DNA of 64,000 bases from a virus. Shown here in pieces: positions 16,540 to 50,514 of this stretch. Position 1 is the first letter of the stretch. The number at the start of each line of letters is the position of its first letter. A program made the position numbers and the translations under genes. The stretch is taken from positions 1 through 64,000 of IMG/VR virus record IMGVR_UViG_3300048583_000366; one strand, given 5' to 3'. The notes below the pieces were generated by a model. It worked only from the letters and a program-made list of their open reading frames with translations. It searched no databases and had not been told where the DNA came from.

Positions 16540-16661
16540 TGAACGGGGCAGGATTTGAACCTACAGTGTGCTGCTCCTATGACACTCACATCTATGTGGT
16601 TTTGCAGACCACTCGCAAACAGCCTCTCAGATAATAGCGTCTACCATTTCGCAACCCGTCC
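16540..16661 (-). tRNA. Oversized tRNA-Cys(GCA)-like gene
   Basis: A 7-bp acceptor (GGACGGG/CCCGTTC with one G.U), a D-arm (GCG-AAATGGTAGA-CGC), a textbook Cys anticodon arm (GTGGT-CTGCAAA-ACCAC) and a regular T-arm (GTAGG-TTCAAAT-CCTGC) are all present, with no encoded CCA. The gene is 122 nt because 23 extra bases lie between the D-arm and anticodon arm and about 31 lie between the anticodon arm and T-arm. Part of each extra segment can pair (GCTGTT/AGCAGC). Whether it is charged, processed further or a tRNA-derived RNA is open. Confidence 0.6.
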
Positions 16662-16797
16662 TCCTTCCGTCTTTCCGGAATGTCGGTATTTTTTACGCTT
16701 CCTTCAGTTATTTCTTAACCGAGTTCGACCCGTAGCGTATAGGTTTGGCAACCTTGGTGCAGCTTTGCCAACACTTCTAATGCTGCACTTGGTACGG
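16662..16797 (-). other. Structured non-coding spacer with an H-type pseudoknot
   Basis: No gene was seen in this 136-base spacer between two tRNA-like genes. Two 7-bp stems interlock: TTGGCAA (16745-16751) with TTGCCAA (16765-16771), and GTGCAGC (16757-16763) with GCTGCAC (16782-16788). A further small hairpin (TTCCG/CGGAA) precedes the tRNA-Cys-like gene. The strand of any RNA is inferred from the flanking genes. Confidence 0.45.
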
Positions 16798-16918
16798 TGG
16801 ATGAGAGAGGACTCGAACCTCTACGTGCTGCCAGGTATTATGGCCCCTCAAATATGAGGTTTTTTACACTCGTAATATCTACCATTACGATACGTCTTCC
16901 AATTTTCGTCACTCATCC
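16798..16918 (-). tRNA. Oversized tRNA-like gene, anticodon uncertain (Leu-like)
   Basis: The gene has a perfect 7-bp acceptor (GGATGAG/CTCATCC) and a perfect T-arm (AGAGG-TTCGAGT-CCTCT) 121 nt apart, and a D-arm resembling tRNA-Leu (ACG..AAATTGGAAGA..CGT). The next hairpin has a 7-bp stem with loop GGTAGAT, which would give anticodon TAG but has G instead of the near-universal U at position 33. A long variable region holds two more hairpins. The size matches the Cys-like gene almost exactly. It may be a class II tRNA, a degenerate one, or a tRNA-like RNA with another role. Confidence 0.5.
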
Positions 16919-17041
16919 TGTTTGGGTCTCTCCCCAACTGTCACCCTCCACTATTTAGCGCCAACGAATACTAACTCACGACTAGAAAGAAACCTGCTAG
17001 ATTCGTTAATTACCCCTGCGGACAGGTCAACGGGGTTCCAG
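16919..17041 (-). other. Structured non-coding spacer
   Basis: No gene was seen in these 123 bases. They hold a 7-bp stem AACGAAT/ATTCGTT enclosing a CTAG/CTAG pair, a CCTG-TCCG-CAGG hairpin, and an imperfect GTTtGGG/CCCcAAC hairpin. This much pairing suggests either tRNA-processing signals or a small structured RNA. Confidence 0.35.
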
Positions 17042-19451: not shown

Positions 19452-19563
19452 AAAAAGTAGGTGCGTATTCGTCCCATCTGTGCCGCTCCGATGGTAATAT
19501 CTCATATCGTTAGATATGATAGGACTTGTTTATGCCTACAAAATGTGGACCCGGTGGGAGTCG

Positions 19564-19799
19564 CTATCCCTCAAAGAACTCTTCCAAGTTCTATCCAATT
19601 ATTTCTAACTGGGGTGGACTATATCATCATCTGTTCTAGATGTTGGATGCTATGGGCTCACCGTAGTGTCCCTAGTCTCTGAACCTTCTTAGGTCTTCCC
19701 CTAAGCTAGGCTGCTGATTAGCATATCTTTGCAGACTTAGCTTTCCAGCAATTCTTCCAATTTTTACCACAGTATCCCTACTATGGGGGTCCGAAATTA
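19564..19799 (-). mobile_element. ORF-less group I intron in the tmRNA T-loop
   Basis: The core elements are readable: P AATTGCTGGAAA (about 19742-19753), Q AATCAGCAGCC, R GTTCAGAGACTA (19673-19684) and S GATATAGTCC (19616-19625), with P7 formed by GACTA/TAGTC. P1 pairs the exon end GGGTT plus T with GGACCC in the intron and places a U.G wobble at the 5' splice site after U55. The intron ends in G at 19564, directly before CGACT of the T-loop. There is no homing endonuclease frame, so mobility would need help in trans. Length is 236 nt. Confidence 0.88.
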
Positions 19800-20135
19800 A
19801 ACCCACGTCCGAGAAAGAAGACAATAATCACAGCATATCACATGCTTAGTACTGGCTTCAGCGTCATTGGGAGAGCTGCCCTTCCCACGAACTTAAAAGG
19901 ATACTAGCCGCAGCGTTATCCTACTGAGCTACCTGCTCCGTAATTTGATCTGCAAGCTGATCAGTATAAAGGCTGAACCGTTTTATGGGTTCAAACTCCA
20001 CCACTTAGTTTTGAGAAAACTAAGAAAACTCGCAAGGCAGCACATATTTGCCTCGATCACTGCATCATTGTGTCTCCTTGAGCATATGCATGTGCATTTC
20101 TATTTTCTGTTGCAAGGTATAGATACCCCGGAGAA

Positions 20136-20219
20136 CTAGGCCATTACGGCTTCGTCCGCTCCTACAAATGCCATAGCATCTTCGAAACTCCAAGTAGAAA
20201 GTTCTACGTTGTCGTTTGT
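20136..20219 (-). other. tmRNA tag-peptide reading frame
   Basis: Read in the frame of the TAG at 20136-20138, the tag starts near ACA AAC GAC AAC (TNDNVELST...) and ends DEAVMA, about 27 residues, against 8-15 in most bacteria. The first bases resemble the E. coli resume region (GCA AAC GAC GAA AAC). The hydrophobic small-residue end is typical of ClpXP-targeting tags. The exact resume codon is inferred, not proven. Confidence 0.65.
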
Positions 20220-20317
20220 TTTTTGTACAGATTTAAAGTCATCTAGTACTTCTGACTGCATGTGTGATTACCACTCGCATTCCCGTCAAAACCAGGCGGG
20301 CCCGTTATGTAAAAGAA

Positions 20318-20736: not shown

Positions 20737-21066
20737 TCAATTCTCCAAATATTTCTGTGAATATTTCTCCTTAATTTTTTTTATCCCATTTACAGCCAGG
20801 GCACAAAGTTCAAAATCTTCATACAATATTAAGGTCTTCATGTTTATCTCTAACGCTTTTATAAAATACTGCTCTTCTGATTTTAAAGTTATATTGTGGG
20901 TGGGAGTTATAATTTTAGCTATCTCTACATAGGTCTTATCTTCATCCACAGCCTCGCAAATACCGCTTACTATTTTACTAGATAATTCCCTCTCATACTC
21001 CTTCAAGAGATCCTCTAGAGGGGTATCCAGATCATCAACTAGTATTTGGAGTATTTTAAAAGCCAT
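20737..21066 (-). CDS. Hypothetical protein (109 aa)
   Basis: A 109-residue, helical and acidic protein. It overlaps the next gene by 11 bp and belongs to a chain of four overlapping genes. No motif is recognised. Confidence 0.6.
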   Translation of the reverse strand: MAFKILQILVDDLDTPLEDLLKEYERELSSKIVSGICEAVDEDKTYVEIAKIITPTHNITLKSEEQYFIKALEINMKTLILYEDFELCALAVNGIKKIKEKYSQKYLEN

Positions 21067-21421
21067 ACTTATTCTTTATATGGTATACCCATTTTAAGCT
21101 ATCTTTAACATCATCCATATTCTGATCCCTCTTCATATTCTCCTCAATCTCCTCGCACTTTACTATCTCCCTTTCCAGGTTAGGTATATTACCGTTCCAA
21201 GTCTCTTTTGCCTGGAAGAATTTTAACCTCTCTTCCAGTCTTTCTTTTAACTTTGGAATCTGTTTAGATACCTCTTTACGCAGTATTTCGTCTTCAGGGA
21301 TTCCTGTTAATACTGATGTCAAGTTTGATGCAAAAGTAGATAGTTTAGAGAGCTTCTGAGAGTCCTCATACCTCTTTAATAACTCATCTGCAGACTGTGA
21401 TAGATGCGATTGCCTTTTCAT
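21056..21421 (-). CDS. Hypothetical helical protein (121 aa)
   Basis: The 121-residue protein is very rich in Lys and Glu and is predicted almost wholly helical, with coiled-coil character from about 60 to 110. It overlaps the HTH/zinc gene by 4 bp. Function is unknown. Confidence 0.6.
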   Translation of the reverse strand: MKRQSHLSQSADELLKRYEDSQKLSKLSTFASNLTSVLTGIPEDEILRKEVSKQIPKLKERLEERLKFFQAKETWNGNIPNLEREIVKCEEIEENMKRDQNMDDVKDSLKWVYHIKNKYGF

Positions 21422-22113
21422 CTCTTTTTAATTGAAACTATTAAATCATTACCAAAATCCTCCGGTTTCTCCTCACTCTTATAAATATGTTTATTTTCTA
21501 AGTTAACTGAGGATTTTATCTCTTTATCATATATTTTGGGTAGTTCAAGATCTATGGGAGTAGTGAAAACTTTGTAATCTTCCATGGCCTCTACTTGCTT
21601 CTTTTGAAAAACATCACCTACGTGAAGAAAATAGCAGTTATAACATAGAAATTCTAAATTTTCTAATTTCCAGTTTTTTTTATTGTTGTCCAGATAGTTT
21701 ACTATTAATGGAACTTTCTCATCCAAAACTCTCTTCTCTCTGAATTTACAACGGGAACACTCCTCTTTCATGTACCCCTCAGATATTATCCTACCCTTAA
21801 TCTCTTTCATAGAGATCATATTGGTATCAACCCTGCCCTCAAGAATATCCAGTAACACAGGGCCCCTGGATTTAGTATTAGCATACTTAGGTATACCTAG
21901 CCCGGAAGGATTTAGATGTAACTCATAGAGTGATTTGCCTTCCTCATTTTTGAATTGAGATGCTATGTTCTTGTAAGTTTTAAAACTAAGTCCAAGGTAC
22001 CTGGCGGCAGCTTTATTTGACTTAGTATACTTCATAGCACGTTCTACGTCCTGCCTATCAAGTATTATCTTTCTAGTCGTTCTTTTCTTTTCTGGATTAT
22101 TGTTTGGTGGCAT
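21418..22113 (-). CDS. HTH plus HNH-like zinc-module protein
   Basis: The 231-residue protein has a helix-turn-helix at about 22-52 (VERAMKYTKSNKAAARYLGL) and a treble-clef module at about 117-165: CSRC, then PLIVNYLDNNKKNWKLENLEFLCYNC. The layout matches HNH endonucleases, but the position of the catalytic His pair reads NYLDNN, so nuclease activity is doubtful. Many phages carry this version, which may act as a DNA-binding regulator. It is flanked by overlapping genes. Confidence 0.6.
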   Translation of the reverse strand: MPPNNNPEKKRTTRKIILDRQDVERAMKYTKSNKAAARYLGLSFKTYKNIASQFKNEEGKSLYELHLNPSGLGIPKYANTKSRGPVLLDILEGRVDTNMISMKEIKGRIISEGYMKEECSRCKFREKRVLDEKVPLIVNYLDNNKKNWKLENLEFLCYNCYFLHVGDVFQKKQVEAMEDYKVFTTPIDLELPKIYDKEIKSSVNLENKHIYKSEEKPEDFGNDLIVSIKKR

Positions 22114-22525
22114 TTTCTAATCCTTTTAAAAGATTCCATAAATCATCTGTATTATCCAGCTTAATAGGGAAGTCAGACTTGTCTCTCAATTCTATCATAG
22201 TCCCATCAGCATTGTATCTGTCATACAGGAAAAAATCTATTAACTTTATCTGCTCTTTTGAGAAAGAGAAGTTAAGAAAAGAATCTATGATCTCAAAAAA
22301 TATCTTATTGTAATTATTAAGATTCACTCCCAAGGCCTCATCCAGCATACCACTCCTCTCTTCTGCCTCTACTATTTTACTTATTATAGTGGAAAATAGG
22401 GCTTTACGTTGATCAGCTTCAGTTTTCTTACGTCTGCCTAAAGTAATTTTTTGACCTAGAATTTTTTCTATAGCTACTTTAACATTCTCTTGGTGCGGTA
22501 GTTCTGGATTGAATTCACTTTTCAT
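22097..22525 (-). CDS. Hypothetical protein (142 aa)
   Basis: The 142-residue protein is helical, with a basic patch near residue 30 (LGRRKKTEADQRK). It overlaps the HTH/zinc gene by 17 bp and the upstream gene by 11 bp. It may form a complex with its neighbours, but nothing specific shows that. Confidence 0.6.
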   Translation of the reverse strand: MKSEFNPELPHQENVKVAIEKILGQKITLGRRKKTEADQRKALFSTIISKIVEAEERSGMLDEALGVNLNNYNKIFFEIIDSFLNFSFSKEQIKLIDFFLYDRYNADGTMIELRDKSDFPIKLDNTDDLWNLLKGLENATKQ

Positions 22526-22868
22526 AACTTAAATTTTCTAATAATTCCGAATCTAGTATGTCCATTAAATCCTTGCATCTCTTACACATCTCATAGTTCT
22601 CAATATCTTCTGAGGAAAAAAATTCAACTGCTTTTAATAGACTATTTCTCCATCTCAACTTATTAAGTACTAGTAAATGTTCCTTATCAAGCATAAAAAT
22701 CTCAGCATTAGATTTTTTATTTTTAATACCATCTTCCACAGACTCTACCAATGTTTTAAATACTACCTGCTTAGATTCTTTTGATTCGCACATAGTCTCA
22801 TAGTCTTTAAAGGATCGGACATTGAAAGTGAGAATCGGTACTACTCTTTTGCTGCTTTTCCTTTTCAT
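22515..22868 (-). CDS. Hypothetical protein (117 aa)
   Basis: The 117-residue protein has a very basic N-terminus (MKRKSSKRVVPIL) and a helical C-terminus with a CKRC pair near residue 102. It begins the four-gene overlapping chain after the WYL-like gene. The family is not recognised. Confidence 0.6.
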   Translation of the reverse strand: MKRKSSKRVVPILTFNVRSFKDYETMCESKESKQVVFKTLVESVEDGIKNKKSNAEIFMLDKEHLLVLNKLRWRNSLLKAVEFFSSEDIENYEMCKRCKDLMDILDSELLENLSYEK

Positions 22869-37036: not shown

Positions 37037-38683
37037 TTACATAAACTGACTGTAGTCAATATCTTCTTTTTTCTTTTCCCCTATAGTATACACTACAGAC
37101 TCTGTTGTGAGGATAGTGCCAGCTACGCTAGCTGCATTTTCTAAAGCTGTTATAGTAACTTTAGTAGGATCTATTATACCAGCAACAAAGGTATTAACCC
37201 TCTGACCTGTTTTTACATTGAACCCTTCCCAATATGGATCCTCAGAGGTAACTTTTTCAGTATTTATTTTGCTTAAAACAGAATGATAATCCTCTATTCC
37301 TGCATTTGCAAGGATAACTCTGAAAGGTGCGTATAAAGCTTTCTCAACTATTCTGAAGCCCATCAATTGATCATCATTATCAAATTCTAAAGTGGAGAAT
37401 TCTTCTATAGAATTTATTAAAGATACACCGCCGCCAGGAACTATGCCCATATCTAGGGCAGCTTTAGTTGCATGAAGAGCATCATCTACACGATCCTTTT
37501 TTTCTTTCATCTCAATTTCACTAAGACCTCCTACATTTATTATAGCTACTCCTCCGGTTAGTTTGGATAATCTATCTTGAAGTCTCTCCCTTTCAAAATT
37601 AGACTTAGCTAAACCTATTTGTGCCTTTATCTCATCAAGGCGCTTCTCAATACCTTCTGCAGATCCCTTACCATCTATGATAGTAGTATCTTTTGAGGAC
37701 ACACTAACCATTCTAGCTTCTCCAAAAAATGTACGAATCTCATCTTTCTTCATCTTATCTATCTTATGACCCTTGGTAGGAGCTACTACGGTTCCTCCAG
37801 TTAAGATAGATATGTCTTCTAATACATGAGTCCTACGATCACCAAAATCAGGAGCTTTTACTGCACATACTTTTATAACATTATTAGCTTTGTTTACAAC
37901 TAACAAAGCTAGAGCCTCTCCTTCAATGTCCTCTGCCACTATTAAAACTCCCTTAGAGTCTTCTGCAGCTGCTTGTAGTATCGGTACTACCTGAGATGCT
38001 CCGGTTAACTTACCATCATACAGGAAGATGTATGGTTTCTCTAACACAGATTGCATCATATTTTGATTAGTGACAAAGTAGAGTGATTTGTACCCTCTAT
38101 CAAACATCATCCCTTCCACTACCTCAAGGGAAGTTTCCCCTGTCTTTGATTCCTCGATTGCAACTACTCCGTCTACTCCAACCTTATCTAAGGCAGTGGC
38201 TATAAGATTTCCAACCTCTTCGTCATTATTGGCTGATAAAGTAGCAACCTGGCGTATTTGATCTTCAGATGATATCTGTCTGCACATCTTCTTTAAAGCA
38301 CTAACAACAGCTTTAACTGCCTTATCTATGCCTTTCTTTACTTCCACCGCATTTGACCCTTGAGCAATTACTTTAATGCCCTCTGTTACCATCATAGTGG
38401 CTAGTAGAGTTGAAGTGGTAGTACCATCCCCTGCCTTATCTGCAGAACTCTCAGACACTGTCCTTATCATCTGGGCACCTATATCTTCTACATCATCTTC
38501 TAATTTACTGAAAGCTTTAGCTACAGTTACGCCATCCTTAGTTATTTTAATAGTGCCGTCATCTCCCCTGATAATAACATTCCTGCCACCCGGGCCTAAT
38601 GTAGAAGATACGCTATTATTTAGAGCATTTATACCAGCTAATAGTTTTTTCTTTAGTTCAGTTCCAAACTCAGTCTTTATCAT
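37037..38683 (-). CDS. groEL: Chaperonin GroEL
   Basis: The 548-residue protein is full length and has the family blocks: [10 protein letters not shown] near residue 31, TKDGVTVAK near 50, [11 protein letters not shown] near 86 (nucleotide-binding), AVEEGIVPGGG-like [11 protein letters not shown] near 408 and an ATP-binding GFRIVEKAL region. The C-terminus lacks the GGM repeats of cellular GroEL. It assembles with GroES into the folding chamber in the cytoplasm. It overlaps the 72-aa gene by 4 bp and is separated from groES by that gene. It is likely used for a phage virion or replication protein. Confidence 0.95.
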
Positions 38684-39214: not shown

Positions 39215-41518
39215 TTAGTGACCTTCCTTCAGGTTTTTAGATATAGCAGGAGGTGCCACCAAAGGTAAGGAAAGTTTTGTTGTATTTTCCATTTTGTCTC
39301 TCACTATTTTAGAAAATTCCTCTGCTTGACTTTCTTCAATTTCCACAACTAACTGGTCATGTATCTGAGCCACAACCAATCCATCAATCCCATGTTCCTT
39401 TAAAGCTCTATTTATTTCTATTGCAGCCCTATTGACTATGGAGGCAGCTAAGCTCTGTATTTGGAAGTTCATTGAGTTATTAACCCCATTCTTATAATCC
39501 CTAACCATGTTTATAACCAAATCTTCTTCTAATTGAGACATTAACCATGATTGAAAAGTCCTATCTAACAATTTGTCTCCAAACTTTTCATAAAGATATG
39601 ATACTTTAGGTAAATGCCTAATTCTTCCCACCTGATTTTTTATATAACCGTTTCTTTTCACAAATTTTTTTGACTCCTCCATCCAATTCCTTAGATTTGG
39701 AAAACTGTCTAAATACCCATCTATCAATACCTGAGCAGCTTTAGTGGAGACATCTATGGACTTTCCAAGAGCATAGGCCTCCATACCATAAGGAATTCCT
39801 AATGAATATGATTTAGCTTTTGTCCGGACCTGTGGTGCAGCATTTCTTAAGTAATTAGGATCTTTTTTATTGGGAGAGTATTGACTTAGTCCCTCTGTCC
39901 TTATCGCAATAGTAGAGTAGAAGTCCCAATTATTTCTGAAGATGTCTTTTAATCCTTCATCTCCTGATACGTGAGCAAAAACCCTAGGCTCTAGAGATTC
40001 ATAGTCACAGTCTATAAACACCTTCCCGGGCTTAGAGATAAAAAAGGCCCGTATTAAATTATTATACTTTATTATGATTTCCTCATCCTCTCCCTCATCT
40101 ATAGGCCTGGGTAACTGTTGAGCATCAGATCCATATCTTCCAGAAACTGTACCATGTTGTTTATAATAAAAATAATATAGACCATCTTCTTGATTGTCTA
40201 AAAATCTATCCATATAGGTAGATTTTATTTTCAGAAGCTTGTTGTATATTCTTAACAACTTAGCCCACCTATTATTTTTGGCTATGCTCTGTATGAACTC
40301 CTCATCAAATTTACTTTTCCCGGCATCAGTTTGAGCTAGTGGCTTAAACTTTAATGCCTTAAAAGCAATCTCTCCCATGTGGGTTTTAGACTGTATGTTG
40401 AAATATTCACCATCCTGGCTTTTTTTCCAAAGTAGAACACTAATTTTAGTTAGGTGTTCATCCTCTATTCCAAAAGGAAGTCCAGTAGTTAGATAATTTT
40501 TTATGGGACTATCAGGTAGTTTTGATACATTTGAAGCATTTATCAGGAACTTTCCTGTTTTTTCTGAAACAGGTAGAGATACTTTATTATACTCTAATAA
40601 CATTTGAGCAAAATTACCTTTATGGCTAGAAGGAAATTCTTTTATTGCTCTACTAACTACCCATTCCCTGACTTCTGGGATCTTTATTAACTCTTCAACT
40701 ACTTCTTTTTTATAAAAAGACAGCTCTTTAGTTATCTCTTCTCTGGAGCTTTGAATGAGTTCCATATTCAACTCCATGCCATTTGATTCCATTGGGATGG
40801 TTACTTCCCTGTATAAAGGCATAACTTCTTCCTCATAGAATAACTTAGTTAACCCTTCCTCTTCTAATATAGGCTCGTAATGATTAAATATTCTTAGCGT
40901 TAAGTCGGTATCAGCACAGGCATAATCTGATAAGATCTTCATATCTGCTTTCCATATCTCATAATTATCTTTTGTGGTAGAGCCCCCATTAGCTTTTATA
41001 GATGCTTTTAGAGCTAACTGTTCTTCATTAGCCTCTTTTTCTATATCCAGGCCCAGCTGTTCTTGTATAGATATGGCTATCTCTTTTAATGCAAATATAG
41101 AAGCAGTTCCATTACCAGCGCCTTCCTCACAAACAGTGTGAACAAGGAGCATAGTATCTGCATATATGCTATCTACTAGATCAATACCGTAGTTGGATTT
41201 TACTATCCTAACATCAAAAGAAAGATTATGACCAATCAGTTTCTTTTTGGATAGTAAGTTTATGGTTTTCTTAGCTAGATCATGACACAGTATCCCATCT
41301 ATATATGAATCTCTCAGCTCACCATCATATACCATAGTGGGCATATAGTACCCCTTACCAACTTCACCTGTAACAGATATGCCTATTACCTTACCCTTCC
41401 TGGTATTCAGACTAGTAGTTTCTGTATCAAAAGAAACTATAGAGTGTTCCTTTATATGCTGTATCATCTCTATAAGAGTGTCTTCGGAGTCTACCGTAAC
41501 ATATTTTTTTTCCTGCAT
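39215..41518 (-). CDS. polA: DNA polymerase family A (Pol I-like) with 3'-5' exonuclease
   Basis: The 767-residue protein has a 3'-5' exonuclease domain: VSFDTETTSLN near 30, LIGHNLSFDVRIV near 95, YACADTDLTLRI near 212. The polymerase domain has motif A DCDYESLEPRVFAH near 518, motif B RTKAKSYSLGIPYG near 585 and motif C AQIHDQLVVE near 715. There is no 5'-3' exonuclease domain; that function is the separate gene at 45536-46576. It is probably the replicative polymerase. Confidence 0.95.
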   Translation of the reverse strand: MQEKKYVTVDSEDTLIEMIQHIKEHSIVSFDTETTSLNTRKGKVIGISVTGEVGKGYYMPTMVYDGELRDSYIDGILCHDLAKKTINLLSKKKLIGHNLSFDVRIVKSNYGIDLVDSIYADTMLLVHTVCEEGAGNGTASIFALKEIAISIQEQLGLDIEKEANEEQLALKASIKANGGSTTKDNYEIWKADMKILSDYACADTDLTLRIFNHYEPILEEEGLTKLFYEEEVMPLYREVTIPMESNGMELNMELIQSSREEITKELSFYKKEVVEELIKIPEVREWVVSRAIKEFPSSHKGNFAQMLLEYNKVSLPVSEKTGKFLINASNVSKLPDSPIKNYLTTGLPFGIEDEHLTKISVLLWKKSQDGEYFNIQSKTHMGEIAFKALKFKPLAQTDAGKSKFDEEFIQSIAKNNRWAKLLRIYNKLLKIKSTYMDRFLDNQEDGLYYFYYKQHGTVSGRYGSDAQQLPRPIDEGEDEEIIIKYNNLIRAFFISKPGKVFIDCDYESLEPRVFAHVSGDEGLKDIFRNNWDFYSTIAIRTEGLSQYSPNKKDPNYLRNAAPQVRTKAKSYSLGIPYGMEAYALGKSIDVSTKAAQVLIDGYLDSFPNLRNWMEESKKFVKRNGYIKNQVGRIRHLPKVSYLYEKFGDKLLDRTFQSWLMSQLEEDLVINMVRDYKNGVNNSMNFQIQSLAASIVNRAAIEINRALKEHGIDGLVVAQIHDQLVVEIEESQAEEFSKIVRDKMENTTKLSLPLVAPPAISKNLKEGH

Positions 41519-49176: not shown

Positions 49177-50514
49177 TTAGATGGATTTCATATCCTGGTA
49201 GTTTTTTCCGAACTTAGCGGAAGTCTTATATCCCCCCTCTTGCAAAATGCCTAAAATATCGTTTAGTAAGGCCTTTCCGTCCTCCTTAGAATAATCTATC
49301 AAAAATGAGTCGTAGCAGTAAAGTATCAGTCGGCTCCTTTTATTATTTAGGAATTTTAGAAGATTGGACAGTATTGTTAGATTTCTAGCAGTTTCATAAT
49401 CTTGCAGTATATATGGCAATATCTGGGTTTTTGTTTCAATTCCAGTGAGTCTCTTTCCGGTAAGGAAGCTTTTTATATACCCGTCTTTTTTGTACTGATC
49501 CCACATAGTGTGTTTAAAGTCCCTGACCTTTGAGAAAAAAGGAATATTTTCAACCTCCTCCAGCTCGTACTCATTGTACAGAAGTCTGAAAGTTAATCCC
49601 TTACTCTCGTCATACTCCTCTTTAGTTATGTCCTCTTTATTGTAGTAGTGTTTTGCCAGGTGTTTATGGATATCGTCATCTCCGAAAGTATAGTTTATTA
49701 AATTGCATAATATTCTAAGGTGATAAGACGAATAATCAAACTCAACTAGGAAATCGTTGGAAGGGATTATAGCTTTCCTGGAACCGTCTTCTTTTTTTAA
49801 AGCAGCGAAGTTAATGCCATTAAAGGAATCAGAGGGTCTCCCGGTAGCCGTTTGCATATTGTATTGGCTATATATCTTACCGTCTTTTATGGATGCATCC
49901 TTTATTCTAGGGGAAAAATGCTTGTCGAATTCTTTCTGATCTATACTTATGCCTGTCTTCTCTATATAATGGAATATTTTAGTAGCCAGTTCTCCATATG
50001 TATCATACCCTGCAGTATTTATTAGTTTTTCTGGATTTTTAAAAAGAGAGATCATCTTTTCCAATTTCTCATAATGCTTTGATACAGGTATTATTTTATT
50101 GACATCTTCTAAGTTGCCGTACTTAGAATAAAAGAATCTATGAGAATTAGTGTTATAATCAGATTCATCTAAAGAAACCCCTTTGGTTAGAAATAGCCCC
50201 GTCCTTAAACAATATAGTGGGCCCTTTCTTCTAAAGTAGTATTTTAATCTTTTAGCATTTACTGCATATACCTTTCCTATTAATTCATTCACTACATTGG
50301 CTATAGAGGAATACGAAAGGGAAAGTGTCTCAGAATGGTTTATGGGTAGTATAAATCCAGCCCTAGACCTGAAAGGCCTTATATAAACTAAGCTTGCCGG
50401 GGATATGGCATTGTGGTAATGATCATTGTATGGGACTACATCTACATAACATTGCGATAAGTCGTATTGACAGTATTTACTAAGCTGTTCTTCAGTCTCG
50501 ATTATGTAATACAA
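49177..50514 (-). CDS. Divergent family A DNA polymerase-like protein
   Basis: The 445-residue protein starts at TTG. Its C-terminal half has family A motifs: MQTATGRPSD near 221 and LVEFDYSSYHLRIL near 256 (motif A), KGLTFRLLYNEY near 305 where Pol I has the O-helix K-x3-F-x2-YG (here N replaces G), and LYCYDSFLID near 408 for motif C. The two catalytic Asp residues appear to be kept. There is no recognisable exonuclease domain in the first 170 residues. It is a second, distinct PolA-like protein, next to tail genes. Activity is untested. Confidence 0.7.
   Translation of the reverse strand: MYYIIETEEQLSKYCQYDLSQCYVDVVPYNDHYHNAISPASLVYIRPFRSRAGFILPINHSETLSLSYSSIANVVNELIGKVYAVNAKRLKYYFRRKGPLYCLRTGLFLTKGVSLDESDYNTNSHRFFYSKYGNLEDVNKIIPVSKHYEKLEKMISLFKNPEKLINTAGYDTYGELATKIFHYIEKTGISIDQKEFDKHFSPRIKDASIKDGKIYSQYNMQTATGRPSDSFNGINFAALKKEDGSRKAIIPSNDFLVEFDYSSYHLRILCNLINYTFGDDDIHKHLAKHYYNKEDITKEEYDESKGLTFRLLYNEYELEEVENIPFFSKVRDFKHTMWDQYKKDGYIKSFLTGKRLTGIETKTQILPYILQDYETARNLTILSNLLKFLNNKRSRLILYCYDSFLIDYSKEDGKALLNDILGILQEGGYKTSAKFGKNYQDMKSI

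What the first reader, a model, noticed from the sequence alone, without database searches (positions are those of the whole stretch)
19546..20303. Phage-encoded tmRNA with an intact alanine identity pair
A complete ssrA gene lies in the phage genome on the same strand as the other genes. Seen directly: the 5' block CCTGGTTTTGACGGG, a 7-bp acceptor whose third pair is G.U (G3.U70), conserved CTAAGCATGTGA and CGGACGTGGG blocks, and a regenerated T-arm. tmRNA is rare in phages; a few large phages have it. With phage GroEL/GroES and tRNAs in the same genome it suggests that the phage manages protein quality and stalled ribosomes itself, for example when host mRNA is degraded during infection. Mature size (about 522 nt) is well above typical tmRNAs.
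Basis: partly seen in the sequence, partly recalled or inferred. Interest (0 to 1): 0.88.

Follow-up and report, generated by a model that had tools for sequence, protein, structure and literature searches.

The report
Intron-split phage tmRNA with long tag
This virus of bacteria carries its own ribosome-rescue RNA, interrupted by a predicted self-splicing intron. It belongs to a previously unnoticed, apparently phage-only family of such RNAs that add an unusually long, conserved 23-26 amino-acid label to unfinished proteins.

Summary
In detail: a complete tmRNA gene lies on the minus strand at 20303-19546. It has a 7-bp acceptor stem with G3.U70 and a 522-nt mature form. Standard tools miss it because a 236-nt group I intron (19799-19564, Rfam 82.8 bits) splits the T-loop. 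ARAGORN finds the tmRNA once the intron is removed. A close relative has the empty site, and another carries the same intron with an HNH endonuclease gene, so the intron is mobile and its boundaries are fixed by comparison.

The main new result is the tag. The reading frame has 25 codons (DNVELSTWSFEDAMAFVGADEAVMA*), against a usual 10. The same long tag occurs in at least 239 IMG/VR viral loci. ARAGORN calls tmRNA in 146 of 160 fetched loci, almost all with 24-26 codons. It was not found in one genome from each of 84,980 bacterial and archaeal species. Peptide-level selection is strong (dN/dS 0.28 overall, 0.10 in the core). The tRNA-like stems covary almost perfectly. A few family members encode SmpB or a ClpP-like protease.

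Best reading: a working phage tmRNA that uses host alanyl-tRNA synthetase and mostly host SmpB, and adds a phage-specific extended degron. What the extra 15 or so residues do is unknown.

The parts
19800..20303 (-). tmRNA exon 1: 5' acceptor strand, D-like region, tag reading frame, pseudoknot region, 5' half of T-arm (ends ...GTGGGTT)
   Evidence: Sequence; ARAGORN on spliced sequence; alignment with 11 relatives
19564..19799 (-). group I intron, 236 nt, between T-loop nucleotides 2 and 3 (TT|CGACT; subsite 3), ending in omega-G
   Evidence: RF00028 82.8 bits, model 1-253 of 253; fold z-score -3.76; empty site in G002 and same-site introns in G001 and G005
19546..19563 (-). tmRNA exon 2: 3' half of T-arm, 3' acceptor strand, discriminator A; CCA not encoded
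   Evidence: Sequence
20297..20303 (-). acceptor stem 5' strand GGGCCCG (pairs with 19547-19553); G3 at 20301 pairs with U70 at 19549
   Evidence: covariation in relatives
20136..20213 (-). tag reading frame, 25 codons plus TAG: DNVELSTWSFEDAMAFVGADEAVMA*; resume codon GAC inferred
   Evidence: Translation; homologous to the long tag in relatives; dN/dS
20194..20207 (-). hairpin inside the tag frame, GTAGA-ACTT-TCTAC, covarying in relatives (GAAGA/TCTTC, TCTGA/TCAGA)
37037..38683 (-). GroEL in the same record (context)
   Evidence: phrog_5725 5e-140; TIGR02348 614 bits
38901..39197 (-). GroES in the same record (context)
   Evidence: PF00166 Cpn10 1.8e-19

Best explanation
This is a functional phage ssrA gene. 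Its transcript contains a group I intron in the T-loop that is expected to splice itself out, restoring GUGGG-UUCGACU-CCCAC and giving a 522-nt tmRNA. The RNA is charged with alanine by the host enzyme (G3.U70), enters stalled ribosomes with SmpB (the host's in this phage; some relatives bring their own), and appends alanine plus a 25-residue tag. The tag is a phage-specific extended degron: an ssrA-like end (YAVAA/YALAA in most members, AVMA here) preceded by a conserved segment ELS-x-(W/M/F)-TF(E/D)DAMAF. The gene is inherited in a lineage of large myophages that probably infect Bacteroidota. Shown here: gene anatomy, intron boundaries, tag conservation and its absence from bacterial genomes. 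Inferred: splicing, charging, trans-translation, and degradation of tagged proteins by a host or phage AAA+ protease.
For: tRNA-like domain with G3.U70 and covarying stems. Group I intron at full model length, with P1 GGGUU/GGACCC, omega-G and empty-site comparison. Long tag in 170 and 239 viral loci. ARAGORN calls tmRNA in 146 of 160 loci, with a 24-26 codon tag in 67 of 70 unique genes and ends VAA 52, LAA 8, MAA 6. dN/dS 0.28 overall and 0.10 in the core, against 1.4 and 2.4 in the other frames. Only three weak matches in 84,980 GTDB species genomes, all inside repeat proteins. SmpB above equivalog cut-offs in a family member. Terminase in most large family contigs. Host signals: 1 of 47 genes with Shine-Dalgarno-like sequence against 18% background; nearest isolates include Flavobacterium phage immuto; intron subsite 3 is otherwise reported only in Bacteroidia (PMC11915505).
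Against: No expression, splicing or tagging data. ARAGORN alone picks a different, unrecognised tag in the spliced window sequence, and the window has C instead of U at -5 of the resume codon. The tag ends in AVMA here and ATFA in the sister clade, not the usual AA, so degradation by ClpXP is less certain for these phages. No SmpB or ClpP was found in this 67.7-kb record. Pseudoknots were not modelled.
Confidence: 0.82

Rival explanations
1. An ordinary recently captured copy of the host's tmRNA, with nothing phage-specific about its tag.
For: Phages do carry host-like tmRNAs (2.3% of 18,146 phage genomes in PMC9004378). The tag starts with ND-N and ends in YALAA/YAVAA in most members, like common bacterial tags.
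Against: The long tag was not found in 84,980 species genomes but is in at least 239 viral loci, in diverged tmRNAs (64-68% exon identity even to the nearest relatives). Similar small genes, including an HNH-like gene, lie upstream of the tmRNA in distant members.
Confidence: 0.08
2. The extended reading frame is not a real tag. Its conservation reflects RNA structure only (for example the GTAGA/TCTAC hairpin).
For: A hairpin inside the frame covaries (GTAGA/TCTAC, GAAGA/TCTTC, TCTGA/TCAGA), so part of the VELST segment is constrained as RNA.
Against: Outside the hairpin the core TFEDAMAFVGA has 50% synonymous difference and dN/dS 0.10. Heterozygosity is concentrated at third codon positions (0.33 against 0.15 and 0.14) and the other frames contain stops. 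ARAGORN independently picks this frame in most relatives.
Confidence: 0.04
3. A decoy or inhibitor of host trans-translation, like the tRNA-domain-only RNA of mycobacteriophage DS6A.
For: Such an RNA is described (PMC4131195, PMC11915505). No SmpB gene is in this record.
Against: DS6A lacks a reading frame. Here the whole mRNA-like part and the tag peptide are under purifying selection, and some relatives add their own SmpB.
Confidence: 0.06
4. A decaying gene: the intron no longer splices and the AVMA tag end marks loss of function.
For: The window clade has atypical tag ends (AVMA, ATFA), and the window tmRNA has about 110 nt more than its sister clade in the pseudoknot region.
Against: Acceptor, T-stem, G3.U70 and intron core are intact. 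The frame is open and its residues match the family consensus.
Confidence: 0.07

Closest known systems
Intron-form tmRNA genes (883 sequences; Nawrocki, Petrov and Williams 2025, PMC11915505)
   Same: Group I intron in the T-psi-C loop. Here it is at subsite 3, reported there only from Bacteroidia.
   Different: This one lies in a phage genome. The homing gene found in the sister phage intron is HNH-type (phrog_3322) and antisense, whereas the paper detected LAGLIDADG genes. The paper's text read here does not mention phage members among intron forms.
Phage tmRNAs of Bacillus phage G, Bxz1-like mycobacteriophages, methylophage Melnitz and huge phages (PMC4131195, PMC9004378, PMC7162821)
   Same: Complete tmRNA encoded by a large phage. 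Huge phages can also encode SmpB.
   Different: The long conserved tag was not found by tblastn in 50,697 phage records. The Melnitz tmRNA is two-piece (permuted); this one is one-piece with an intron.
Mesoplasma florum ssrA tag (AANKNEENTNEVPTFMLNAGQANYAFA; PMC9097571)
   Same: A tag of similar length, read by a dedicated protease (Lon).
   Different: No visible sequence similarity. The phage tags mostly end in AVAA/ALAA rather than YAFA.
Flavobacterium phage vB_FspM_immuto
   Same: Nearest isolate by GroEL (53%), with tail sheath (50% over 54% of the query) and a further protein also matching.
   Different: No tmRNA found by RF00023.

Membership tests
tmRNA (RF00023) | tRNA-like domain: 7-bp acceptor, 5-bp T-stem, TTCGA loop | tested here: met
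tmRNA (RF00023) | G3.U70 alanine identity pair | tested here: met
   Window and 36 of 37 other unique sequences; the one exception, L190, looks like a misplaced ARAGORN 5' end
tmRNA (RF00023) | tag reading frame with resume codon and stop | tested here: met
   Comparative. ARAGORN did not recognise it in the window itself.
tmRNA (RF00023) | covariance-model match spanning both ends | tested here: inconclusive
   None on the raw window because of the intron. Intronless relative G002 scores 67.4 bits over the full model. The spliced window could not be given to the model search.
tmRNA (RF00023) | pseudoknots around the reading frame | not tested
   Only a global alignment and a pseudoknot-free fold were made
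tmRNA (RF00023) | alanylation, SmpB binding, tagging | not testable with these tools
   Needs experiments
Group I intron (RF00028) | full catalytic core | tested here: met
   82.8 bits, positions 1-253 of 253
Group I intron (RF00028) | U at -1 pairing with G in P1; terminal G | tested here: met
   GGGUU|...GGACCC and ...AUAG|CGA read from sequence; hairpin in the fold
Group I intron (RF00028) | self-splicing | not testable with these tools
   Needs in vitro splicing
Intron-form tmRNA, subsite 3 | insertion between T-loop nucleotides 2 and 3 | tested here: met
   TT|CGACT in the window; TT|CGAAT in G001 and G005; uninterrupted TTCGAAT in G002

The most novel reading that the evidence does not exclude
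Large Bacteroidota phages share a phage-only tmRNA lineage whose extended tag does more than mark proteins for ordinary host ClpXP. The conserved ELSxWTFEDAMAF segment would be recognised by a specific partner (a phage or host adaptor, protease such as the linked ClpP-like protein, or chaperonin), so that the phage reprograms where stalled nascent proteins go during infection.
Probability: 0.35. Interest if true: 0.82.

Novelty: new variant of a known kind. Interest (0 to 1): 0.64.

Why it matters
Ribosome rescue is normally the host's business. A large family of phages that carry their own tmRNA with a distinct, strongly conserved tag suggests that phages redirect the fate of stalled proteins instead of merely copying the host system. 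The tag is short, well defined and easy to test by mass spectrometry or by fusing it to a reporter. The intron series (empty site, intron, intron with endonuclease gene) in nearly identical phages shows recent intron mobility into a tmRNA gene. Because tools miss the intron form and may misread the tag, such genes are probably under-annotated.

Tried and rejected
RF00023 and ARAGORN on the raw window: no tmRNA, explained by the intron. ARAGORN's tag AHAYAQGDTMMQ for the spliced window was rejected because it is labelled 'not identified' and has no counterpart in relatives. I first considered resume codons further upstream (K, Q) in the tag; comparison and ARAGORN in relatives point to GAC/GCA. 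The three bacterial genome matches were rejected: they lie inside repeat proteins of Ruminococcus/Anaerotruncus. Tag against Pfam and PDB: nothing meaningful. Tag motif elsewhere in the same phage genomes: only one weak 11.5-bit match. ClpP-like genes as a dedicated partner: found in 9 of 25 contigs, often within 4-6 kb of the tmRNA, but below the cut-offs of both ClpP and head-maturation-protease models and absent from other large members, so not claimed. Nearest isolates show no tmRNA (Flavobacterium phage immuto) or only weak partial matches. A literature search for FEDAMAF found nothing.

Full report
**Observation.** The acceptor is GGGCCCG/CGGGTCC with G3.U70, followed by discriminator A. 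CCA is not encoded. Standard searches of the raw window do not report a tmRNA (ARAGORN; Rfam). What Rfam reports is a full-length group I intron (RF00028, 82.8 bits, E 1.5e-19) inside the gene.

**Intron.** The boundaries follow the usual rules: -1 U paired with G in P1 (GGGUU/GGACCC) and a terminal G. This gives an intron at 19799-19564 (236 nt), and the joined exons restore GTGGG-TTCGACT-CCCAC. ARAGORN then calls a tmRNA with an intact tRNA domain. The intron folds better than all 200 shuffles (z -3.76). The insertion point, between T-loop nucleotides 2 and 3, corresponds to subsite 3 of Nawrocki et al. 2025. They report that subsite only from class Bacteroidia (PMC11915505). The correspondence of numbering is my reading of their figure legend.

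**Allelic series.** GroEL-guided searching found sister phages whose tmRNA genes could be compared. G002 has no intron: TTCGAAT is uninterrupted, and RF00023 gives 67.4 bits. G005 has a 278-nt intron at the same site. G001 has a 798-nt intron at the same site with an antisense endonuclease gene (phrog_3322, E 1e-22; also HNH families). The exons of G001 and G002 are 98.0% identical. The intron cores of G001 and G005 are 98.8% identical while their exons are 93.6% identical. This is the pattern of recent intron movement, and it independently fixes the exon boundaries.

**Long tag.** The relatives share a reading frame much longer than the common 10-residue tag (PMC11915505). In the window it is DNVELSTWSFEDAMAFVGADEAVMA*, 25 codons at 20213-20136. 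A search of IMG/VR with five aligned tags gave 170 confirmed loci. With 29 tags it gave 239. Of 160 fetched loci (the two sets overlap), ARAGORN calls tmRNA in 146, which are 70 unique genes. Tag lengths are 24 (40 genes), 25 (21) and 26 (6), with three outliers that it probably misreads. Tag ends are VAA (52), LAA (8), MAA (6) and a few others. The sister clade of the window has 23 codons. The consensus is about (D/A)NVELSTWTFEDAMAFVGADYAVAA.

**Is the tag peptide real?** Over 42 distinct coding sequences dN/dS is 0.28 for the aligned tag and 0.10 for the core TFEDAMAFVGA. The two other frames give 1.4 and 2.4 and contain stops. Third codon positions vary most. One short stretch is also constrained as RNA: a hairpin GTAGA-N4-TCTAC changes to GAAGA/TCTTC and TCTGA/TCAGA in other members, with matching amino-acid changes. 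It is imperfect in a minority, including the sister clade.

**Phage specificity.** The same queries in one genome for each of 84,980 bacterial and archaeal species gave no tmRNA. Three weak matches lie in repeat proteins. No convincing match was found in 50,697 phage records, so the family appears to be almost unsampled by cultivation. Most of the family contigs tested above 130 kb carry a terminase, so these are phage genomes. A bacterial host outside these collections could still have such a tag.

**tRNA-like domain.** Thirty-two distinct acceptor/T-arm sequences pair in 99.5% of cells. Nine of 12 pairs have changes on both sides, and G3.U70 is invariant in this set. This argues strongly for function as a tRNA mimic.

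**Partners.** SmpB is not in the window record. It is encoded by four other family members, and the one tested is above NCBIfam equivalog cut-offs (161 bits against 130). GroEL is in 13 of the 19 contigs that were chosen by the tag alone (the other six were found through GroEL). A ClpP-like gene is in 9 of 25 contigs and lies 4-6 kb from the tmRNA in seven. Its models do not separate true ClpP from head-maturation protease.

**Host.** The window phage uses almost no Shine-Dalgarno sequence (1 of 47 genes against 18% background). The nearest isolates include Flavobacterium phage immuto and, more remotely, Rhodothermus phage RM378. Together with the intron subsite this points to a Bacteroidota host. 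This is inference. One fairly close relative by tail sheath is recorded from Microcystis.

**How it probably works.** The intron splices out, the RNA is charged with alanine, SmpB delivers it to stalled ribosomes, and the long tag is added. The AVAA/ALAA ends of most members suggest degradation by a ClpXP-like protease. The window's AVMA and the sister clade's ATFA are atypical, and the role of the conserved inner segment is unknown. Long tags are known in Mesoplasma, where they are read by Lon (PMC9097571). This shows that tag length can go with protease choice, but there is no sequence resemblance.

**Novelty.** The tmRNA itself and the T-loop group I intron are known kinds. The combination in a phage, and above all a phage-restricted tmRNA family with a conserved 23-26 residue tag, is not described in the open-access papers I could search.

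Noticed in passing
window 16540-16661 (-) and about 16794-16919 (-): Two odd tRNA-like genes, 122 and about 120 nt, with normal acceptor and T-arms but long inserts before the T-arm. One matches RF00005 at 31.8 bits. ARAGORN calls neither, and no convincing copies were found in seven relatives.
   Followed up: partly
window about 19870-19960 (-): The window tmRNA has about 110 nt more than its sister clade in the pseudoknot region. One inserted stretch (GGAGCAGGTAGCTCAGTAGGATA) looks like the 5' half of a tRNA.
   Followed up: partly
L146 (G015), L239 (G054), L240 (G058), L241 (G060): Phage-encoded SmpB in members of the long-tag tmRNA family.
   Followed up: partly
L338:3362-3904, L339:4152-4691, L340:8053-8616, L341:8718-9359: ClpP-like protease genes a few kb from the tmRNA in several family members.
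   Followed up: partly
L340:3845-4441 (-): Antisense HNH-type endonuclease gene inside the tmRNA group I intron of G001.
   Followed up: yes
window 20737-22868 (-), L338, L339, L342, L343: A set of small genes, including an HNH-like gene (21418-22113), lies upstream of the tmRNA; similar-looking sets occur upstream of the tmRNA in sister and distant phages.
   Followed up: partly
window 39215-41518 (-) and 49177-50514 (-): Two separate family-A DNA polymerase-like genes, the second matching only part of the polymerase profile.
   Followed up: no
whole window: Shine-Dalgarno-like sequence is depleted before genes (1 of 47 against 18% background), as expected for a phage of Bacteroidota.
   Followed up: partly
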